Assembly: GCA_023132075.1 (NCBI GenBank)
Contig: JAGLYT010000098.1
Location: forward strand, 1 to 6,286
Length of the DNA: 6,286 bases
Reading direction: 5' to 3'
DNA from: JAGLHV01 sp023132075 [NCBI: bacterium]
GTDB taxonomy: Bacteria > CBDUZB01 > JAGLHV01
Below are positions 1 through 6,286 of this stretch, piece after piece. The position numbers and the translations under genes are program-made. Within the stretch, counting starts at the first letter, position 1, and every line of letters begins with the position of its first letter. The notes beneath the pieces were generated by a model. It saw only the letters and a program-made list of their open reading frames with translations. It was not told where the DNA came from and ran no database searches.

Positions 1-1265
1 TTATTAAATCCTTTAAAACGAACAACCTGTCCCGAAGCTCGAAAAAGATACTTTTTTGCCTGAATATCTATTGCGGTAACATCTAATATTGCATCAGCCA
101 TTTGACTGGCTAAAAACCGCTGCCATATCAAACTATAAAGTTTAAATTGATTAGAATCTAAATGTTCTTTAATTACCTCCGGAGCTTTAAAAACAGAAGT
201 CGGCCGAATAGCCTCATGTGCTTCTTGTGCTCCTTTACTTTTTGTTTTATAAATTCGTTGCTTTACAGGCAGGTATTCTTTTCCGTATTTTTCGCTAATA
301 TAATCATTTGCTTCTTTTCTTGCAGAAACAGCTACATTCAAAGAATCAGTACGCATATAAGTAATTAGTCCCTCATTACCTTTTTCCCCAAGGCTAATTC
401 CCTCATAAAGTTGTTGTGCTATTACCATCGTGCGTTTAGCAGAAAACGACAATTTCTGCCAAGCTTCCTGCTGCAATGTGCTGGTAGTAAAAGGCGGTAA
501 AGGTCTTTGTTTCTTTTCTTTTTTGTTAATTTTTGAGACTTTATAAATTGCACCGGAAAGATCTTCTGTTATTTCTAACGCTTGCTTTTCATTCGCAATT
601 CCTAATTTATCGTATTTTTTGCCCTGCTTGGCAATTAATAAAGCATTGAATAACTCTTCTTCTTCCTGTTTTTTAAGACTTGCTTTTATTGTCCAGTATT
701 CCTGGGCTTTAAAAGCTCCTATTTCTTTTTCTCTGTCGACAATTAACCGTAAGGCAATTGACTGAACTCTGCCGGCAGAAAGCCCTCTTCTTATTTTTTT
801 AGCTAATAACGGACTTAATTTATATCCAACCAAACGATCTAAAATTCGCCGTGCCTGTTGAGCATTTATTAAATGCATATCAATTTGCCGTGGATTTTTT
901 ACGGCATTTTCTATCGCCTGTTTAGTAATCTCATGAAAAACAATTCGTTTAATTTTTTTAGAAGGAATGCTAATAGATTCTATTAAATGCCAACCGATTG
1001 CTTCTCCTTCTCTATCCTGATCGGTAGCAATATAAACTTTGTCAACATTTTTAACTATTTTTTGCAATTCTTTTATAACCTTCGACTTGCCTTTAATGAT
1101 TTGATAGGTAGGCTGAAAGTTATTTTTAACATCCACCCCTAACTTGCTTGCAGGTAAATCACGAACATGTCCCAATGAGTTTTTTACTATGTAATTGTCT
1201 CCTAAAAATCGATTTATTGTCTTTGCTTTAGTCGGAGATTCTACAATAACCAGAAATTTACTCAA
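1..1265 (-). CDS. topA: DNA topoisomerase I (type IA), N-terminal 421 codons, runs off left edge
   Basis: TopA relaxes negatively supercoiled DNA by cutting one strand through a 5'-phosphotyrosine link. The visible part starts SKFLVIVESPTKAKTI, the typical TOPRIM opening with the acidic Glu9. LGHVRDLP follows, then the metal-binding run TDQDREGEA (Asp82, Asp84, Glu88). The strand-passage core shows RPLPPFTTSTLQQEA, a catalytic Tyr303 in GLITYMRTDS with Arg305 after it, and His350 in EAHEAIRPT. The window ends in RASGQVVRFKGF, so the rest of the core and any C-terminal zinc-finger domains lie outside. The start is TTG at 1265-1263. An in-frame TGA lies only three codons upstream (1277-1275), so no ATG or GTG start is possible there, and SKFLVIVES begins exactly where family members begin. 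The start overlaps the stop of the preceding small gene in TTGA, which suggests translational coupling in a dprA-orf-topA operon. No frameshift or missing catalytic residue is visible. Identification is very secure. Confidence 0.97.
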   Translation of the reverse strand, partial: MSKFLVIVESPTKAKTINRFLGDNYIVKNSLGHVRDLPASKLGVDVKNNFQPTYQIIKGKSKVIKELQKIVKNVDKVYIATDQDREGEAIGWHLIESISIPSKKIKRIVFHEITKQAIENAVKNPRQIDMHLINAQQARRILDRLVGYKLSPLLAKKIRRGLSAGRVQSIALRLIVDREKEIGAFKAQEYWTIKASLKKQEEEELFNALLIAKQGKKYDKLGIANEKQALEITEDLSGAIYKVSKINKKEKKQRPLPPFTTSTLQQEAWQKLSFSAKRTMVIAQQLYEGISLGEKGNEGLITYMRTDSLNVAVSARKEANDYISEKYGKEYLPVKQRIYKTKSKGAQEAHEAIRPTSVFKAPEVIKEHLDSNQFKLYSLIWQRFLASQMADAILDVTAIDIQAKKYLFRASGQVVRFKGFN

Positions 1266-1465
1266 TTTAAAAGCTCACCACTTTCTTTAGTTTTTTTTCT
1301 TTGTTCAATATACCCAATAAGTGTACGAATAAAAACATCTTCCATCTCTTCAGATTCATATCTTTCATTTTCATCAAATCCTTCTTTTTGGTACTCGTAA
1401 AAATCTATTATTCCTTCTGTTTCTTTTTCGAGAAATTTACTTATTTCTTTAGCACGTTTATTCAT
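1262..1465 (-). CDS. Small acidic protein of unknown function between dprA and topA
   Basis: This is a 67-residue protein that I do not recognise. It is highly charged: about 18 Asp/Glu against 12 Lys/Arg, with most acids in the middle (FDENERYESEEMEDVF). It has no signal peptide, membrane segment, cysteine or proline. It looks largely helical, with amphipathic ends (MNKRAKEISKFLEKETEGII and FIRTLIGYIEQRKK), and is probably cytoplasmic. The ATG (1465-1463) follows the dprA TAA with no gap, and AAAGGGG lies six bases before it, a good Shine-Dalgarno. Its TGA overlaps the topA TTG. The tight packing, the good ribosome site and a composition like its neighbours argue for a real gene rather than chance. 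A role linked to topoisomerase or DNA uptake would be a guess from position only. Bacillus, as I recall it, has smf and topA adjacent without such an insert. Confidence 0.75.
   Translation of the reverse strand: MNKRAKEISKFLEKETEGIIDFYEYQKEGFDENERYESEEMEDVFIRTLIGYIEQRKKTKESGELLN
1274..1279 (-). promoter_or_regulatory. Ribosome binding site of topA
   Basis: GGTGAG lies eight bases before the TTG start, inside the last codons of the small upstream gene. It is an imperfect Shine-Dalgarno sequence. A weak site, a TTG start and a four-base overlap with the upstream stop together suggest that topA translation depends partly on ribosomes finishing the upstream gene. This last step is inference. Confidence 0.55.
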
Positions 1466-2584
1466 TTATATCCCCTTTCTAATAAACATTTTACCTGAAA
1501 CTTGTTTTATTAATCCCTTTATCTCCATTAACATTAAAGAAGAAGAAATATCCTTAACCGGCAAATCACATTTTTGGACAATCACATCAATTGGTACAGG
1601 TTCCCACAAAACACAATCATAAATCTTTTGTTCCTTTTGATTTAAAGAACAAATTGGTGTTTGGATTGTTTTGTTGGATTCCTCTCTGCTTTCAATGTTA
1701 AAATTCTTAGAAAAAACCTTTATTTCTTCAATTACATCATTAACGTTTTCCACCAGTTTAGCCCCCTCCTTAATTAAACCATGGGAACCCTGGCTGTATC
1801 TGCTAAATATATTTCCGGGTATAGCAAAAACTTCCCTTCCTTGTTGAAGAGCTAAATTTGCTGTAATCAATGCTCCACTTTTTTCTACGGCCTCTACAAC
1901 AATAGTCCCTAAACTTAATCCACTAATAATTCGATTACGAATAGGGAAATTAGTGCGTTCAGGCAAAGATTCCATTGAAAATTCCGAAACGACCGCTCCT
2001 TGTTGGGAAATAGTATCCCCCAAATCTTTGTTTTCTTTTGGATAAATCATTGATAATCCGTTTCCTAACACAGCAATGGTTCTTCCCCCTCCGGCAAGAG
2101 CTCCTTTATGGGCAAGGGTATCAATTCCCCGGGCTAAGCCACTTATCACGGTTATACCCATTGAGACTAAATCACGGCTTATTTTTTCAGCAACCATTCT
2201 CCCATAAGGCGTTGCTTTGCGCGATCCTACAACCGCAATAGAAAGATCATCTCTAGATAAAAACTCCCCTTTCATGTAGAGAAGGAAAGGAGGATCATAG
2301 ATGGATTTTAAATTAACAGGATAATCACTATCATTAAAAGTGACTATTTTTATTTTATGTTCCTCAATTAATTTTAACTCGGTTTCGATATTAACATTCT
2401 TTAAATTATCCCAAATAGTTCTTGCCCTTCTCTTGCCTATCCCTTCAACATTTTCCAATTCGCTTAAAGAAGATGATACAACATTGGCCGGAGAAAAAAA
2501 ATACTTCATCAATTTTTGAAAACAAATAGGCCCTATTTCAGGGACCATCTTAAGTTTAATCCAGTCTATTTTTTCTCTTTTCAT
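1466..2584 (-). CDS. dprA: DNA-processing protein DprA (Smf), RecA loader in transformation
   Basis: DprA binds incoming single-stranded DNA in the cytoplasm and loads RecA onto it during natural transformation. It is also widespread in species not known to be competent. From the ATG at 2584 the protein has 372 residues, a normal length. An N-terminal helix-hairpin-helix-like region (about 12-62, MVPEIGP and VEGIGKRRA) is followed by a Rossmann-fold core with VGSRKATPYG (GSR at 120-122), SGLARGIDTLAHKGAL (from 148), TIAVLGNGLSMIYPKEN, FPIRNRIISGLS (from 213) and SGALITA (236-242). A winged-helix-like C-terminal domain covers about 318-372. I chose ATG 2584 over an in-frame TTG at 2602 because AGGAA lies six bases before it, and because the predicted transcription start (about 2606) would leave the TTG almost no leader. 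It is the first gene after the promoter at 2613-2641, and its stop touches the next ATG. No lesion is visible. Confidence 0.96.
   Translation of the reverse strand: MKREKIDWIKLKMVPEIGPICFQKLMKYFFSPANVVSSSLSELENVEGIGKRRARTIWDNLKNVNIETELKLIEEHKIKIVTFNDSDYPVNLKSIYDPPFLLYMKGEFLSRDDLSIAVVGSRKATPYGRMVAEKISRDLVSMGITVISGLARGIDTLAHKGALAGGGRTIAVLGNGLSMIYPKENKDLGDTISQQGAVVSEFSMESLPERTNFPIRNRIISGLSLGTIVVEAVEKSGALITANLALQQGREVFAIPGNIFSRYSQGSHGLIKEGAKLVENVNDVIEEIKVFSKNFNIESREESNKTIQTPICSLNQKEQKIYDCVLWEPVPIDVIVQKCDLPVKDISSSLMLMEIKGLIKQVSGKMFIRKGI
1472..1478 (-). promoter_or_regulatory. Ribosome binding site of the 67-aa gene
   Basis: AAAGGGG sits six bases upstream of the ATG at 1465, within the last codons of dprA. 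It is the strongest Shine-Dalgarno in the dprA-topA cluster and is main support that the small frame is translated. Confidence 0.65.
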
Positions 2585-2590
2585 TTCATT

Positions 2591-2595
2591 TTCCT
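2591..2595 (-). promoter_or_regulatory. Ribosome binding site of dprA that decides its start
   Basis: AGGAA lies six bases before the ATG at 2584-2582. The alternative TTG at 2602 has only A/T-rich sequence before it and no Shine-Dalgarno. The site therefore favours the 372-residue form over the 378-residue form. Confidence 0.6.
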
Positions 2596-2612
2596 GAAAC
2601 AAAATTTTTTCA

Positions 2613-2641
2613 ATAATATAAAGATTCTCTTAAAAAGTCAA
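2613..2641 (-). promoter_or_regulatory. Sigma-70-type promoter for the dprA-orf-topA operon
   Basis: The -35 box is TTGACT (2641-2636, five of six matches to TTGACA). The -10 box is TATTAT (2618-2613, five of six to TATAAT). The spacer is exactly 17 bases. Transcription should begin near 2606, giving a leader of about 22 bases before the dprA ATG with room for the AGGAA ribosome site. No operator-like inverted repeat is seen over it, so constitutive vegetative transcription is the simplest reading. Confidence 0.7.
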
Positions 2642-2720
2642 GAAAATAAAGACAAAATTTTTAATATTAAACAATATGAACTGCTAAAAAACAAAGTAAA
2701 ACATTGATTAACTTCAAAGT

Positions 2721-3315
2721 TTAATTTAACATCTTTTCCATAAATAAAAACATCGTTATAATTTTTAATATCTTTTTACAACTATTATCAGACATACATT
2801 CTAAAGTTAATGCGGGATGAAAAGGAAAAGAAATATCTTTATAATATTCAAGAGGCAACCGGGGATAAATAGCCCCACAACAAAGGAAATCCACTACCTT
2901 TAAAAACATGGTAATATGCCCAAAAATGAAAACAAGGATTTATTTGTACTCCCGGCTTAGTATTTATATTTAGAGGAAGAATGATTTGATTTTTCAGTAT
3001 TTTTTGCATGGGAAAAAAATATTTTTTCATTCCTTTATTAATTATGAGATAAAACCCGCTTATATGCATTATCCAGAAAACAAACAAAAGAACCATGACA
3101 ATTATCCAAACAGAAGACAACACATTTTTTTTTAAATTGCGCAACTCAATTATTGCCGGAAATAAAACAGTAATTACTAAAAACAAAAAAAGAGGAGGAA
3201 ATTTAACTAACCAGACAGGCAAAAGCAAAAAAACAATTAAACCGATACCACGGATAATAAAAAAAAATCAACGGACAATATTTTTTTGTGTTTTATTTTT
3301 TACATTCCGTTTATT
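2721..3315 (-). pseudogene. Probable decayed gene for a small membrane protein
   Basis: I do not recognise the family. The longest open stretch (3267-2848, first usable start TTG 3228) encodes about three hydrophobic segments: IGLIVFLLLPVWLV, PPLFLFLVITVLFPAII and SVWIIVMVLLFVFWIMHISG. Short basic loops (ELRNLKKN, NKGMKKYF) separate or follow them, an arrangement expected of a real inner-membrane protein. It looks broken in two places. Upstream, the same frame continues as a basic leader (NKRNVKNKTQKNIVR, 3315-3271) that is cut off by TGA at 3270-3268. Downstream, the frame ends at 2848-2850 after GYLSPVAS, while an overlapping frame (2909-2721) carries a plausible soluble tail (IYPRLPLEYYKDISFPFHPA). 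That fits a frameshift near 2860-2880. No Shine-Dalgarno precedes TTG 3228. Alternatives are a short intact 126-aa membrane protein (2848-3228), sequencing error in the homopolymers, or plain noncoding DNA. The coding strand is inferred from the hydrophobic pattern. Confidence 0.35.
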
Positions 3316-3343
3316 TTAAATATACCGTTACTCCAAAAATTAT

Positions 3344-6286
3344 TTAAGCAGTAACCAATTTTTCTTCCTGACGAAGTTTGACAGAAATAAATTTAGAAAC
3401 ACCGAATTCTTCCATAGTAATACCGTACAAGGCATCAGCTACTTCCATTGTTTTCTTATTATGGGTAATTATACTAAATTGAGTTTGCGAGGAAAAATCT
3501 TTTAGTAAACGAACAAAACGGACTAAATTAGCATCATCAAGGGGAGCATCTACTTCATCAAAAACACAAAAAGGAGAAGGTTTTACCAAATAAAAAGCAA
3601 ATAAAAGGGCAATTGCGGTCAATGCCTTTTCTCCCCCCGATAAAAGTGAAAGATTTTGCAATTTTTTACCCGGGGGTTGTACAATAATGTCTATTCCCGA
3701 TTCCAAAATATCATTTTCGTCGGTCAAAAGTAAATCTGCCTGTCCCCCTTCAAATAAACTCTTAAACACTTCTTGGAAGTGTCCACGAATTTTTTCAAAA
3801 ACATCCTTAAAACTGTTTTTGGTAGTAGCATCGACTTTGGTTATTACCTGACGTAAATCTTCTTTTGCCTTTAACAGATCCTCCTGCTGTTTATTTAAAA
3901 AATTCCATCTTTCCTGTAAACGGTTATATTCTTCCGGTGCGGCCAAATTTACCATACCTAAAGATTCTACTTTTCGTTTTAAATTTTCAATTTCTGATTC
4001 CGGAATTTCTGCCTCCGGACAATAAGTGTCTGCCTCATCTCTGCTTAGACTATATTCTTTTTCAAATTTGTCCTCTATTGCTCCGGTTTCCATTTGAATA
4101 CGCATAACCTGTAATTCAACTTGATGTGATTGTTCCCTGTTTTTATTTAAAGCCCCTCTAAAAGACTTTAAATCTTCCTCTTCTTTTTTCAACTGTTGAG
4201 TAATTTCAAACTTTGCAGACTGAATATCCTTTAGTTTCTCATTCAATAAATCTTTTTCTTTATAAAAGTGCTCTATTTTTCCATCTTCTACTACTTTTGT
4301 CCCTTCTAATTCTTTTTTCCGTTTATCAAAATAATCAAATTCGTTTTTCTTGTTTTTAATTTGATTTTCCAACAGGGTTTCTTCTAATTTAAATCTTTTT
4401 ATGTCTTTTTTTAAATTTTCCAGCCTTTCAACATTTCTGGAAACTTCTGTTTTCAACAGAATCATTTCTTCCTGCAAGGATTTATGAAGATTTTTCTTTT
4501 TTTCTAAATTTTCCTCTATTGATTTTGTGTTTTCTTCTATTTCTTTTTCTTTTCTTTCATATTTAGAAAATTCCTGTCTCAATTCTCCAAGCAAATTTTC
4601 ATTATTTAAAATTTCTTTATCCAGATTTTCTTTTTCCCGTAAAATAGTCTCTATGTCCGCTAAAAGAAATTTTTGTTCTTTATCTTTTTGTTCTTTATCT
4701 TTTTGGAGGCCGGCGAGAATTATCTTTTCTTCTTCTATTTCAGGCAATTTGTTTTGCTCAAAAAATAATGTATCGTCTATTTGTTTAGAAATATTTATCA
4801 TTTTATCCAATAAAATATTTATTTCTTCTAATTTTTTCTCTGTTTCGTCAGGATTATACCCGTGAATGTTTTCTCGAAGACTTACCAGTGCATCCTTTAA
4901 TTTGAGCATCAAATTTTTAGATTCACCGGATGCAAAATCTTTGTCTTTTTTATCAATCAGCATTGACTTTTTTTGTTCTTCAAAAAACTCTAATTTTTTT
5001 TCTTTTTCACCAATTAATTGCTGAATTTTATTCTTTTCCTGTTCTATTAACTGCTTTTGCTCTTCTTTTCTTCTTTTTTCTATTAATAGTTTTTCTTTTT
5101 TTGTTTTAAAATTTTCCAGATATACTTCCGAAGCGGAAATTTTGTTTCTTATTTTTGATTTTTGGGTTAATAAATTTATTATTTCTTCTTTGCCAGCTCT
5201 AAAGCTATTATCTAATTCTTTTAACTGTTCTTCTGCCTTTTTATAACTTTCTTCTTTTTGAGAATCTTTTTCCCCTTCCGTTGAAGTTTTTCCCTGATAA
5301 AAATTAAAATCTTCTTCTGTCTTTTTTAAGGAGGCAAATGAATTTGTTAATCTTTCCTCCATTTCTTTAATTTCTGTTTCATTATTCTTTTTTCTCAAAA
5401 GCAGCTCTTCCTGTTGTGCCTGATGTGACTTAACCTTGTCCTCCAAATGAATAATTTCCGAAGATTTATTGAAAACTTCCTGCTGAACGCGCAATATGTT
5501 TTTTTCCCTATCGGTTAACTCCGTTTGCAAAGAAACGATACCGGCTTCTTTTTGAGTCATTTTCGCATTAATTCCTTGAGTTTCCTGGGTGAAACTTTGA
5601 AGCCCCTCTTCTTCTTCTTTGAGTTGTTGTTCAAGTTTTTTTAGGTTTTGCATTAAAAATCCAACTTCGACTTTTTTTAATTCTTCCTTATGTTTTTGAA
5701 ATTGACGGGCTTTTCGCGATTGATAATCCAAAGAACCAATTTGTCTTTTAACTTCGCTCATTATATCCTGCAAACGGATAAGATTCTGCTCTGTTTTATC
5801 TAATTTTCGCAATGCTTCTTCTTTGCGTGATTTATACTTGGTAACCCCTGCCGCTTCTTCAAAAATAAATCGTCTTTCCTCCGGTTTGGCATTGATAATA
5901 AATTCTACCTTGCCTTGCTCAATTAAGGAATAACTATCTACACCCATGCCTGTATCCATAAACAATTCAACAATATCCTTTAATCGACAACGATTTTTAT
6001 TAATATAATATTCGCTTTCACCTGAACGAAACAAACGACGCATAATGTTTACTTCTTTGTAATCAACAGGTAAAACATTTTGGGAATTATCCAGGGTAAG
6101 AGACACTTCTGCCATACTCAAAGGCTTCCTGGTGCGAGAACCATTGAAAATTACATCTTCCATCCGTTTTCCCCGCAATTGATGGGTGCTTTGTTCTCCC
6201 ATTACCCATTTTATTGCATCTACTACATTTGTCTTCCCGCAACCATTAGGACCAACAATTGCAGTAATACCCGATTCAAATTCTAT
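3344..6286 (-). CDS. smc: Chromosome segregation ATPase SMC, apparently hingeless, N-terminus off right edge
   Basis: SMC is the ATPase of the condensin-like complex (usually with ScpA and ScpB) that extrudes DNA loops and helps separate chromosomes. The frame is open to the right edge and gives 980 residues. About 20-25 are missing, because the first visible residues IEFESGITAIVG correspond to about position 22 in relatives. Numbered from the edge: Walker A GPNGCGKTN at 12-20, the Q-loop region SLIEQGKVE near 120-128, FIFEEAAGVTKYKSRK at about 140-155, coiled coil from about 190 to 770, ABC signature LSGGEK at 882-887, Walker B CVFDEVDAPLDD with Asp910 and Glu911, and the switch histidine in ITHNK at 942. 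Both head halves are intact, so it should be an active ATPase. What is odd is the length: about 1,000 residues instead of about 1,150-1,190, with no hinge-domain sequence between the coils. No CxxC zinc hook is present, so it is not Rad50/SbcC. The stop is TAA at 3346-3344. Confidence 0.96.
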   Translation of the reverse strand: MEFESGITAIVGPNGCGKTNVVDAIKWVMGEQSTHQLRGKRMEDVIFNGSRTRKPLSMAEVSLTLDNSQNVLPVDYKEVNIMRRLFRSGESEYYINKNRCRLKDIVELFMDTGMGVDSYSLIEQGKVEFIINAKPEERRFIFEEAAGVTKYKSRKEEALRKLDKTEQNLIRLQDIMSEVKRQIGSLDYQSRKARQFQKHKEELKKVEVGFLMQNLKKLEQQLKEEEEGLQSFTQETQGINAKMTQKEAGIVSLQTELTDREKNILRVQQEVFNKSSEIIHLEDKVKSHQAQQEELLLRKKNNETEIKEMEERLTNSFASLKKTEEDFNFYQGKTSTEGEKDSQKEESYKKAEEQLKELDNSFRAGKEEIINLLTQKSKIRNKISASEVYLENFKTKKEKLLIEKRRKEEQKQLIEQEKNKIQQLIGEKEKKLEFFEEQKKSMLIDKKDKDFASGESKNLMLKLKDALVSLRENIHGYNPDETEKKLEEINILLDKMINISKQIDDTLFFEQNKLPEIEEEKIILAGLQKDKEQKDKEQKFLLADIETILREKENLDKEILNNENLLGELRQEFSKYERKEKEIEENTKSIEENLEKKKNLHKSLQEEMILLKTEVSRNVERLENLKKDIKRFKLEETLLENQIKNKKNEFDYFDKRKKELEGTKVVEDGKIEHFYKEKDLLNEKLKDIQSAKFEITQQLKKEEEDLKSFRGALNKNREQSHQVELQVMRIQMETGAIEDKFEKEYSLSRDEADTYCPEAEIPESEIENLKRKVESLGMVNLAAPEEYNRLQERWNFLNKQQEDLLKAKEDLRQVITKVDATTKNSFKDVFEKIRGHFQEVFKSLFEGGQADLLLTDENDILESGIDIIVQPPGKKLQNLSLLSGGEKALTAIALLFAFYLVKPSPFCVFDEVDAPLDDANLVRFVRLLKDFSSQTQFSIITHNKKTMEVADALYGITMEEFGVSKFISVKLRQEEKLVTA
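4670..4705 (-). repeat. Two-copy 15-base tandem repeat inside the SMC coiled coil
   Basis: A perfect 15-base period covers 36 bases and encodes KDKEQ twice (visible residues 529-538). The unit is in frame, but five residues is not a multiple of the coiled-coil heptad, so each copy shifts the heptad phase. It looks like a recent slippage duplication tolerated in a flexible part of the arm. Confidence 0.8.
4832..4954 (-). other. Central break in the SMC coiled coil where a hinge would be expected
   Basis: This part of smc encodes visible residues about 445-485: a stretch with FASGES, then a short amphipathic helix, then HGYNPDE, after which heptad-like Glu/Lys-rich sequence resumes. It lies almost exactly midway between the N-terminal head (ending near residue 190) and the C-terminal head (starting near 770). 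It is the clearest candidate for the turn joining two antiparallel arms. A normal hinge is about 120-150 residues with several conserved glycines and beta strands. Only about 40 non-heptad residues exist here. Confidence 0.5.

What the first reader, a model, noticed from the sequence alone, without database searches (positions are those of the whole stretch)
3970..5710. SMC protein that seems to lack the hinge domain
Seen: two complete ATPase halves joined by about 580 residues that are nearly all Lys/Glu/Leu-rich heptad-like sequence, with no glycine-rich globular segment. Known: bacterial SMCs normally dimerise through a hinge of about 120-150 residues with conserved glycines, in the middle of the arms, and total about 1,150-1,190 residues. 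This one is about 1,000, and the shortfall is roughly one hinge. Inference: it either dimerises another way (arm tips, heads or a partner protein) or folds back through a minimal turn. It would be a useful natural test of what the hinge is for.
Basis: partly seen in the sequence, partly recalled or inferred. Interest (0 to 1): 0.65.

Follow-up and report, generated by a model that had tools for sequence, protein, structure and literature searches.

The report
SMC chromosome protein without its hinge
This bacterium's chromosome-organising SMC protein has both motor halves and normal-length arms, but the joint that usually pairs two copies is gone and a simple helical turn stands in its place; the same absence is seen in several other bacterial groups, apparently including spirochaetes, so nature offers a test of what the joint is for.

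Summary
The window carries a 980-residue SMC (3344-6286, minus strand; about 20 N-terminal codons lie off the contig) that passes the bacterial SMC equivalog cut-off and has intact ATPase motifs, but no SMC_hinge match. Head-to-head spacing is 188 residues, about one hinge, shorter than in its nearest hinged relatives. AlphaFold2 gives only helices between the heads, with a hairpin tip of low confidence. Three of three species of the genus share it. ScpA is found in two of the three, ScpB was confirmed in one. The absence recurs: a head-domain tree needs four changes: this genus, G060/G065, small-genome relatives of a Woeseia record, and a phylum I identify as Spirochaetota (0 of 60 genomes drawn over the hinge cut-off, 57 of 60 with an SMC match). 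A hinge-less SMC clade in marine Actinobacteria is already in print (PMC12153180), so the kind is known; its recurrence and the spirochaete extent I did not find in print. How two copies pair is inferred, not shown.

The parts
3344..6286 (-). smc gene, 980 codons plus stop, 5' end (about 20 codons) beyond the contig end
   Evidence: same-genus homologues with open frames of 1000 and 1003 codons
5717..6286 (-). N-terminal ATPase half (residues 1-190); Walker A GPNGCGKT at 6230-6253
   Evidence: (invariant columns G12-K18)
4952..5716 (-). N-terminal coiled-coil arm (residues 191-445)
   Evidence: AlphaFold2 helix 207-445; total spacing compared with hinged relatives
4853..4951 (-). tip in place of the hinge (residues 446-478): break 446-448, helix 449-475, turn 476-478
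   Evidence: block means of pLDDT 46-58 here; no detectable homology to hinges or to other tips
3962..4852 (-). C-terminal coiled-coil arm (residues 479-775)
   Evidence: AlphaFold2 helix 479-743
3347..3961 (-). C-terminal ATPase half (residues 776-980); signature LSGGEK at 3626-3643, Walker B region with DE at 3533-3571
1466..2602 (-). dprA, next recognised gene downstream; same order smc-dprA-topA in L035
3..1265 (-). topA, 3' part beyond the window

Best explanation
It is the only SMC found in its genus, the ATPase subunit of a Smc-ScpAB condensin in which the toroidal hinge has been lost and the two arms are joined by a helical hairpin. Shown: intact ATPase motifs, arm length kept, no hinge match and no second SMC match in the genomes searched, ScpA in the two more complete sister genomes. 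Inferred: it still works as a DNA-entrapping motor, and the far ends of two protomers are held by coiled-coil (arm-arm and tip) contacts, with ScpA-ScpB and head engagement closing the head end. It should lack the single-stranded-DNA gate that a hinge channel provides, so any bypass of obstacles would go through the arm lumen or be avoided by co-orientation with replication.
For: SMC equivalog model passed, 879.5 bits against 567.35, Rad50 and RecN models far below their cut-offs. Spacing 635 against 823 in the hinged relatives L037, L038 and L041. Spacing nearly invariant within each hinge-less clade: 3 of 3, 2 of 2, and 7 of 9 with the other 2 one residue shorter. Purifying selection: dN/dS 0.04-0.09 in heads, 0.14-0.20 in arms, 0.24-0.37 in residues 441-540. 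Models of two hinge-less lineages are all helix between the heads. ScpA in G001, G002, G060, G064 and in 29 of 29 further genomes taken as hinge-less; ScpB confirmed beside ScpA in G002 and G060. B. subtilis Smc works with a Rad50 zinc hook in place of its hinge (PMC5344682, section 12 read); [quoted passage not shown] subtilis Smc (PMC5526789, passage); [quoted passage not shown]
Against: No dimer was predicted or measured. Block means of pLDDT are 46-63 over residues 441-510, so the shape of the tip is unsure. The tip is the least conserved part in this genus and poorly conserved in the gamma clade, which does not look like a dedicated dimer interface. ScpA was not found in the window's own genome, which is 86.7% complete in 389 contigs. 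PF06470 misses or barely finds some divergent hinges, so its silence alone is weak evidence. Only 14 of 31 first-look candidates were scored in G002.
Confidence: 0.68

Rival explanations
1. The tip is a dedicated helical dimerisation module (two hairpins packing as a bundle), a replacement hinge rather than a bare turn.
For: In the spirochaete phylum two stretches flanking the apex are conserved above the arms (identity 0.28 and 0.32 against about 0.15-0.23 in the arms, 16 sequences), and the tips of two spirochaete sets match each other at 96.8% probability. In the window the tip has a break and an extra helix.
Against: The apex between those stretches is the least conserved part in the spirochaetes too (0.12-0.13). 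In the window genus the tip is the minimum of conservation and in the gamma clade near it; tips of different clades show no homology to each other (6.5% probability at most).
Confidence: 0.3
2. No distal dimerisation at all: protomers meet only at heads and through ScpA-ScpB, an open V without a closed SMC compartment.
For: Low conservation and simple hairpin form of the tip in this genus and the gamma clade.
Against: Arm length stays fixed nearly to the residue within clades, as expected of arms that must work in register; in Wadjet the ring must be closed for activity (PMC12647877).
Confidence: 0.15
3. A hinge is supplied in trans by another protein.
For: None found.
Against: No PF06470 match at E<=0.001 in six frames of G000-G002, nor at E<=1 in G060, G065 and 9 gamma genomes. 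A hinge too divergent for PF06470 would escape these searches.
Confidence: 0.03
4. Assembly artefact or decaying gene.
For: The window is a contig of a fragmented, incomplete genome (389 contigs) and ends inside the gene.
Against: Intact frames in three species of the genus, dN/dS below 0.4 in every region measured, other clades with the same absence.
Confidence: 0.02

Closest known systems
Bacterial Smc (Smc-ScpAB condensin, TIGR02168)
   Same: Head motifs, arm length, one match per genome, ScpA and ScpB in sister genomes
   Different: No SMC_hinge match; helical hairpin tip
Hinge-less SMC clade of marine Actinobacteria (Sussfeld et al. 2025, PMC12153180; abstract and passages seen)
   Same: SMC-type heads, coiled coil, no hinge, no CXXC hook
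   Different: Other lineages. That paper describes one clade, regards paralogy as unlikely and a different function or a different way of binding DNA as possible; here four state changes on a tree, hinged sisters in two clades, ScpA retained, arm lengths measured. Its sequences were not compared here.
Rad50/SbcC
   Same: Long coiled coil without a toroidal hinge (PMC12153180 passage)
   Different: No CxxC anywhere in the 980 residues; Rad50 models at 50.2 bits or less against cut-offs of 700 or more
RecN
   Same: Coiled-coil hairpin without a hinge (recalled)
   Different: TIGR00634 at 48.6 bits against a cut-off of 407.85; arms much longer than in RecN (recalled)
Channel-less hinges of MukB, Wadjet-II/III and Acetobacter Smc (PMC12647877, section 13)
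   Same: No toroidal channel expected
   Different: Those keep a hinge domain and, by that paper, tend to have longer arms; here the spacing is ordinary or shorter in most clades, longer by about 70 residues in 5 spirochaete loci

Membership tests
Bacterial Smc | SMC-type ATPase halves with Walker A, signature, Walker B | tested here: met
Bacterial Smc | Passes curated equivalog cut-off (TIGR02168) | tested here: met
   879.5 bits against 567.35; the sister model TIGR02169 (437.1 against 729.4) is not passed
Bacterial Smc | Central SMC_hinge domain (PF06470) | tested here: not met
   no match at E<=1, no strand between the heads in the model. It is therefore filed as a hinge-less variant, not as a canonical Smc
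Bacterial Smc | Kleisin ScpA and KITE ScpB in the same genome | tested here: inconclusive
   ScpA not found in G000 (86.7% complete), present in sisters G001 and G002; ScpB confirmed in G002, not sought in G000
Bacterial Smc | Homodimer, DNA entrapment, loop extrusion | not testable with these tools
   needs protein work
Rad50/SbcC | CxxC zinc hook at the tip | tested here: not met
   no CxxC in the 980 residues
RecN | Passes TIGR00634 cut-off | tested here: not met
   48.6 bits against 407.85
Marine actinobacterial hinge-less SMC | Membership of that clade | not tested
   its sequences were not on hand

The most novel reading that the evidence does not exclude
The SMC hinge is evolutionarily disposable in bacterial condensins: it was lost at least four times, once at or near the base of Spirochaetota, while ScpA and a tuned arm length were kept, and in most clades the arms did not lengthen to make up for the lost gate. 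Ring closure would then rest on arm and tip contacts, and cultured spirochaetes would be natural hinge-less condensin models.
Probability: 0.6. Interest if true: 0.82.

Novelty: new variant of a known kind. Interest (0 to 1): 0.66.

Why it matters
What the SMC hinge does beyond dimerisation is an open matter: in B. subtilis its fold proved replaceable (PMC5344682), and recent work makes it a gate for obstacle bypass that is dispensable for loop extrusion (PMC12647877). Natural absence in several lineages with ScpA kept gives matched hinged and hinge-less sister pairs. It predicts that motor activity survives and hinge-gated bypass does not. It also bears on the suggestion that loss of the hinge channel goes with longer arms, since in most clades here the spacing is ordinary or shorter. 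If the spirochaete result holds, it concerns a phylum with cultured and medically important members.

Tried and rejected
Length alone was rejected as a criterion: gamma relatives of 1008 and 1012 aa (L153, L152) are short yet keep a hinge stretch (PF06470 E 2.7e-6, and only 0.028, below its cut-off). PF06470 alone was rejected too: at E<=0.001 it was silent in 20 of 60 genomes including the window's three, among them G005, G009, G015 and G046 with SMC frames of 1129-1159 aa, which I did not resolve; of the named controls, Caulobacter and Bacteroides ring only at E<=1 and below the cut-off. A single loss shared by the window genus and G060/G065 is not formally rejected (p-AU 0.061), though it would need the hinge to return. 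Homology between the hinge-less tips was tested by profile comparison and not found outside the spirochaetes (hinge against hinge as positive control gave 54.6 and 77.9% in the two directions). Rarity could not be estimated: of 386 genomes 317 had a match, but the match list was cut.

Rows dropped: one search kept 48 of 53 sequences for the tree (anchors not found in L054, L181, L184, L186, L196). For one search, 12 spirochaete rows were added and 8 rows left out (L050, L083, L182 as long branches; L135-L138 and L192 as near-copies), giving 52. In one search the dN/dS comparisons of the window with L035 and L007 were off by one codon and are void; one search replaces them. Literature: one search was unspecific; two searches gave nothing on spirochaete SMC hinges (PMC11020477 and PMC10123090, passages are about other matters); one search found no paper with 'hingeless'. 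No fold search was run, and no hinged protein was modelled as a control.

Full report
WHAT IS THERE. The minus-strand ORF 3344-6286 encodes 980 residues of an SMC protein whose first codons lie beyond the end of the contig. In the same genus the proteins are open frames of 1000 (G001) and 1003 (G002) residues. The protein passes the NCBIfam bacterial SMC equivalog (879.5 bits, cut-off 567.35); Rad50 and RecN models score far below their cut-offs. Pfam finds SMC_N and no SMC_hinge at E<=1. Gene order smc-dprA-topA is shared with L035, whose SMC is identical to that of G002 at the same place.

THE HINGE IS MISSING AND THE ARMS ARE NOT. Between the head motifs FEEAAG and GMVNL there are 635 residues in 3 of 3 species, and 823 in the hinged relatives L037, L038 and L041, a difference of 188. 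With a second pair of anchors the values are 730 (3 of 3) against 918 (4 of 4: L037, L038, L041, L200). PF06470 covers residues 527-636 of L037. Glycine peaks at 4 per 100 residues in the window's middle and at 9 in L037. AlphaFold2 on a 38-sequence alignment gives helices 207-445, 449-475 and 479-743 and no strand from residue 124 to 848; block means of pLDDT over residues 441-510 are 46-63. The same was done for L039 of another clade with 36 sequences: one helix 171-443, a loop 444-450, one helix 451-663, with pLDDT under 50 at 432-451. No hinged protein was modelled as a control; the control for hinge detection is Pfam on L037, L044 and L153, which hit.

GENOME CHECKS. PF06470 has no match at E<=0.001 in the own genome or in G001 and G002; the same search rings in 10 of 14 named control genomes. 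One SMC match in each of the three genomes, with 14 of 31 candidates scored in G002. ScpA: present in G001, G002, G060, G061, G062, G063, G064, absent from G000, so 7 of 8. Of these seven, G001, G002, G060 and G064 have hinge-less SMCs and G061-G063 hinged ones. ScpB lies next to ScpA and was confirmed in G002 and G060. In a second set of 29 genomes (20 of the spirochaete phylum, G065, 8 gamma genomes) ScpA was found in 29.

THE ABSENCE RECURS. (a) The window genus, 3 of 3. (b) G060 (L036) and G065 (L157): the search of their phylum took 6 genomes, 2 with a one-piece match and frames of 983 and 1000 aa, 4 with a split match and 1195-1212 aa. (c) The order of L039, recorded as Woeseia sp. (Woeseiaceae, Pseudomonadota): of 97 genomes drawn, 92 had a match; in the rows listed (the list was cut) 10 showed one piece across the hinge place (9 complete, frames 907-914 aa, and G159, cut at its 5' end); the only match in G147 covers residues 1-415 and cannot tell, and G097, G123 and G129 likewise gave one partial match each. 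The 10 genomes are 1.1-1.6 Mb, most of the others larger. (d) The phylum of G019: 57 of 60 genomes drawn have an SMC match; 0 of 60 have PF06470 over its cut-off, and 14 have weak matches (E 0.05-0.8), none of them at the place of the SMC match. Of 9 proteins of this phylum scanned, 8 have no SMC_hinge at E<=1, and for L216 it is not among the best 25 of 32 families shown (E up to 0.096); L025 has none. I identify the phylum as Spirochaetota because FlaA (PF04620), recalled as specific to spirochaete flagella, was found in 20 of 20 of its genomes tested, in 0 of 5 others and in 0 of 14 controls. In a whole-genome check of 24 genomes, PF06470 had no match at E<=1 in G060, G065, G269 and 9 gamma hinge-less genomes; G019 had one at E 0.289 away from its SMC; the hinged G061-G063, G066, G341, G466, G071, G077, G107 and G154 passed the cut-off, and G158 gave E 0.008, below the cut-off.

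TREE. On head domains only, with the hinge left out, 52 rows of which 23 are hinge-less, the label needs 4 changes, and starred branches force 4; the 13 spirochaete rows form one clade (99/94), G060/G065 group with hinged L037, L038, L041 and L200 (99/92). An earlier tree of 48 rows, 15 of them hinge-less, also gave 4. Reading the four changes as losses assumes that the hinge is ancestral. Against four: holding the window genus and G060/G065 together is not rejected (p-AU 0.061, 23 rows).

THE TIPS. Profile comparison finds no homology of the window's tip to a hinge (0.1% or less) or to the other tips (2.3% or less); over all pairs of hinge-less clades the most is 6.5%, except the two spirochaete sets with each other (96.8%, E 2e-10). 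Hinge against hinge, from small alignments too (7 and 3 rows), gives 54.6 and 77.9% in the two directions. In the spirochaetes two stretches flanking the apex are conserved above the arms (0.28 and 0.32), while the apex between them is the lowest (0.12-0.13; 16 sequences), so they may have a replacement module. In the window genus residues 441-540 have the highest dN/dS (0.24-0.37, still under constraint), and in the gamma clade the tip is poorly conserved (0.34-0.41), with one arm stretch lower still (0.29 at 341-380).

HOW IT PROBABLY WORKS. Established by others: B. subtilis Smc tolerates a Rad50 zinc hook in place of its hinge, with normal growth on rich medium (PMC5344682, section 12); its arm contacts probably contribute to dimerisation of hinge-less Smc (PMC5526789, passage citing Minnen 2016); Wadjet extrudes loops without its hinge provided that the ring is closed, and the hinge channel serves obstacle bypass (PMC12647877, abstract and sections 10 and 13). 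My inference: arm and tip contacts replace the hinge, heads and ScpAB do the rest, and hinge-gated bypass is lost. That paper links channel-less hinges to longer arms. Here the second-anchor spacing is 730 in the window genus, the same as the 918 of its hinged relatives less a 188-residue hinge; 698 in G060/G065, shorter than that; 629-630 in the gamma clade, shorter than L188 and L189 (890) less such a hinge, but longer than the short-armed hinged L152 and L153 (736) less one; 643-688 in 17 spirochaete loci, shorter than 730; and 799-800 in 5 spirochaete loci (L201-L205), about 70 longer. So the arms did not lengthen in most clades, and moderately in one spirochaete subgroup.

WHAT IS KNOWN. 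Sussfeld et al. 2025 (PMC12153180; abstract and passages of the main text) report hinge-less SMCs in a marine actinobacterial clade. That main text does not hold Spirochaet, Treponema, Borrelia, Woeseia, Gammaproteobacteria or Elusimicrob. I did not find hinge-less SMCs of spirochaetes or of these other lineages in print in searches, which cover open-licence PubMed Central papers only; supplements were not seen. Borrelia SMC is recruited by ParB and supports origin segregation (PMC9712426, passages); I did not test whether that protein is hinge-less.

VERDICT. A real, well supported hinge-less Smc, of a kind described once before as far as I found; the recurrence and the extent in spirochaetes are the new part. 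The mechanism of pairing remains open.

Noticed in passing
window 2603-3343: About 740 bases lie between dprA and smc here, against about 170 in L035 (4100-4273); a hydrophobic 126-aa ORF (2848-3228, minus) has no Pfam match.
   Followed up: partly
L035 21-770: A transposase gene (DDE_Tnp_1_4, E 6e-25) stands upstream of smc in L035; the window's contig breaks inside the 5' end of smc.
   Followed up: no
window 1262-1465: A 67-aa ORF between dprA and topA has no Pfam or NCBIfam match.
   Followed up: no
L181-L184 (G009, G015, G005, G046): SMCs of 1129-1159 aa in genomes without a PF06470 match at E<=0.001; very divergent hinge or another tip, unresolved.
   Followed up: partly
L035, L036, L037, L038: Record titles say 'Clostridia bacterium', but the SMC heads group with Elusimicrobiota and f197 rows, and outside its genus the window's genome has only 'same domain' kin among the relatives searched.
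   Followed up: no
G064, G142, G093, G079, G127, G135, G117, G153, G105, G159: Within this gammaproteobacterial order the hinge-less SMCs sit in small genomes of 1.1-1.6 Mb; hinge loss may go with genome streamlining.
   Followed up: partly
G142:C2, G105:C55, G093:C1, G064:C1: scpA lies within about 800 bases downstream of smc in these hinge-less gamma genomes.
   Followed up: no
G172:C171: G172 shows the same contig number, place and frame length as G060 and is probably the same genome, there rated 98% complete.
   Followed up: no
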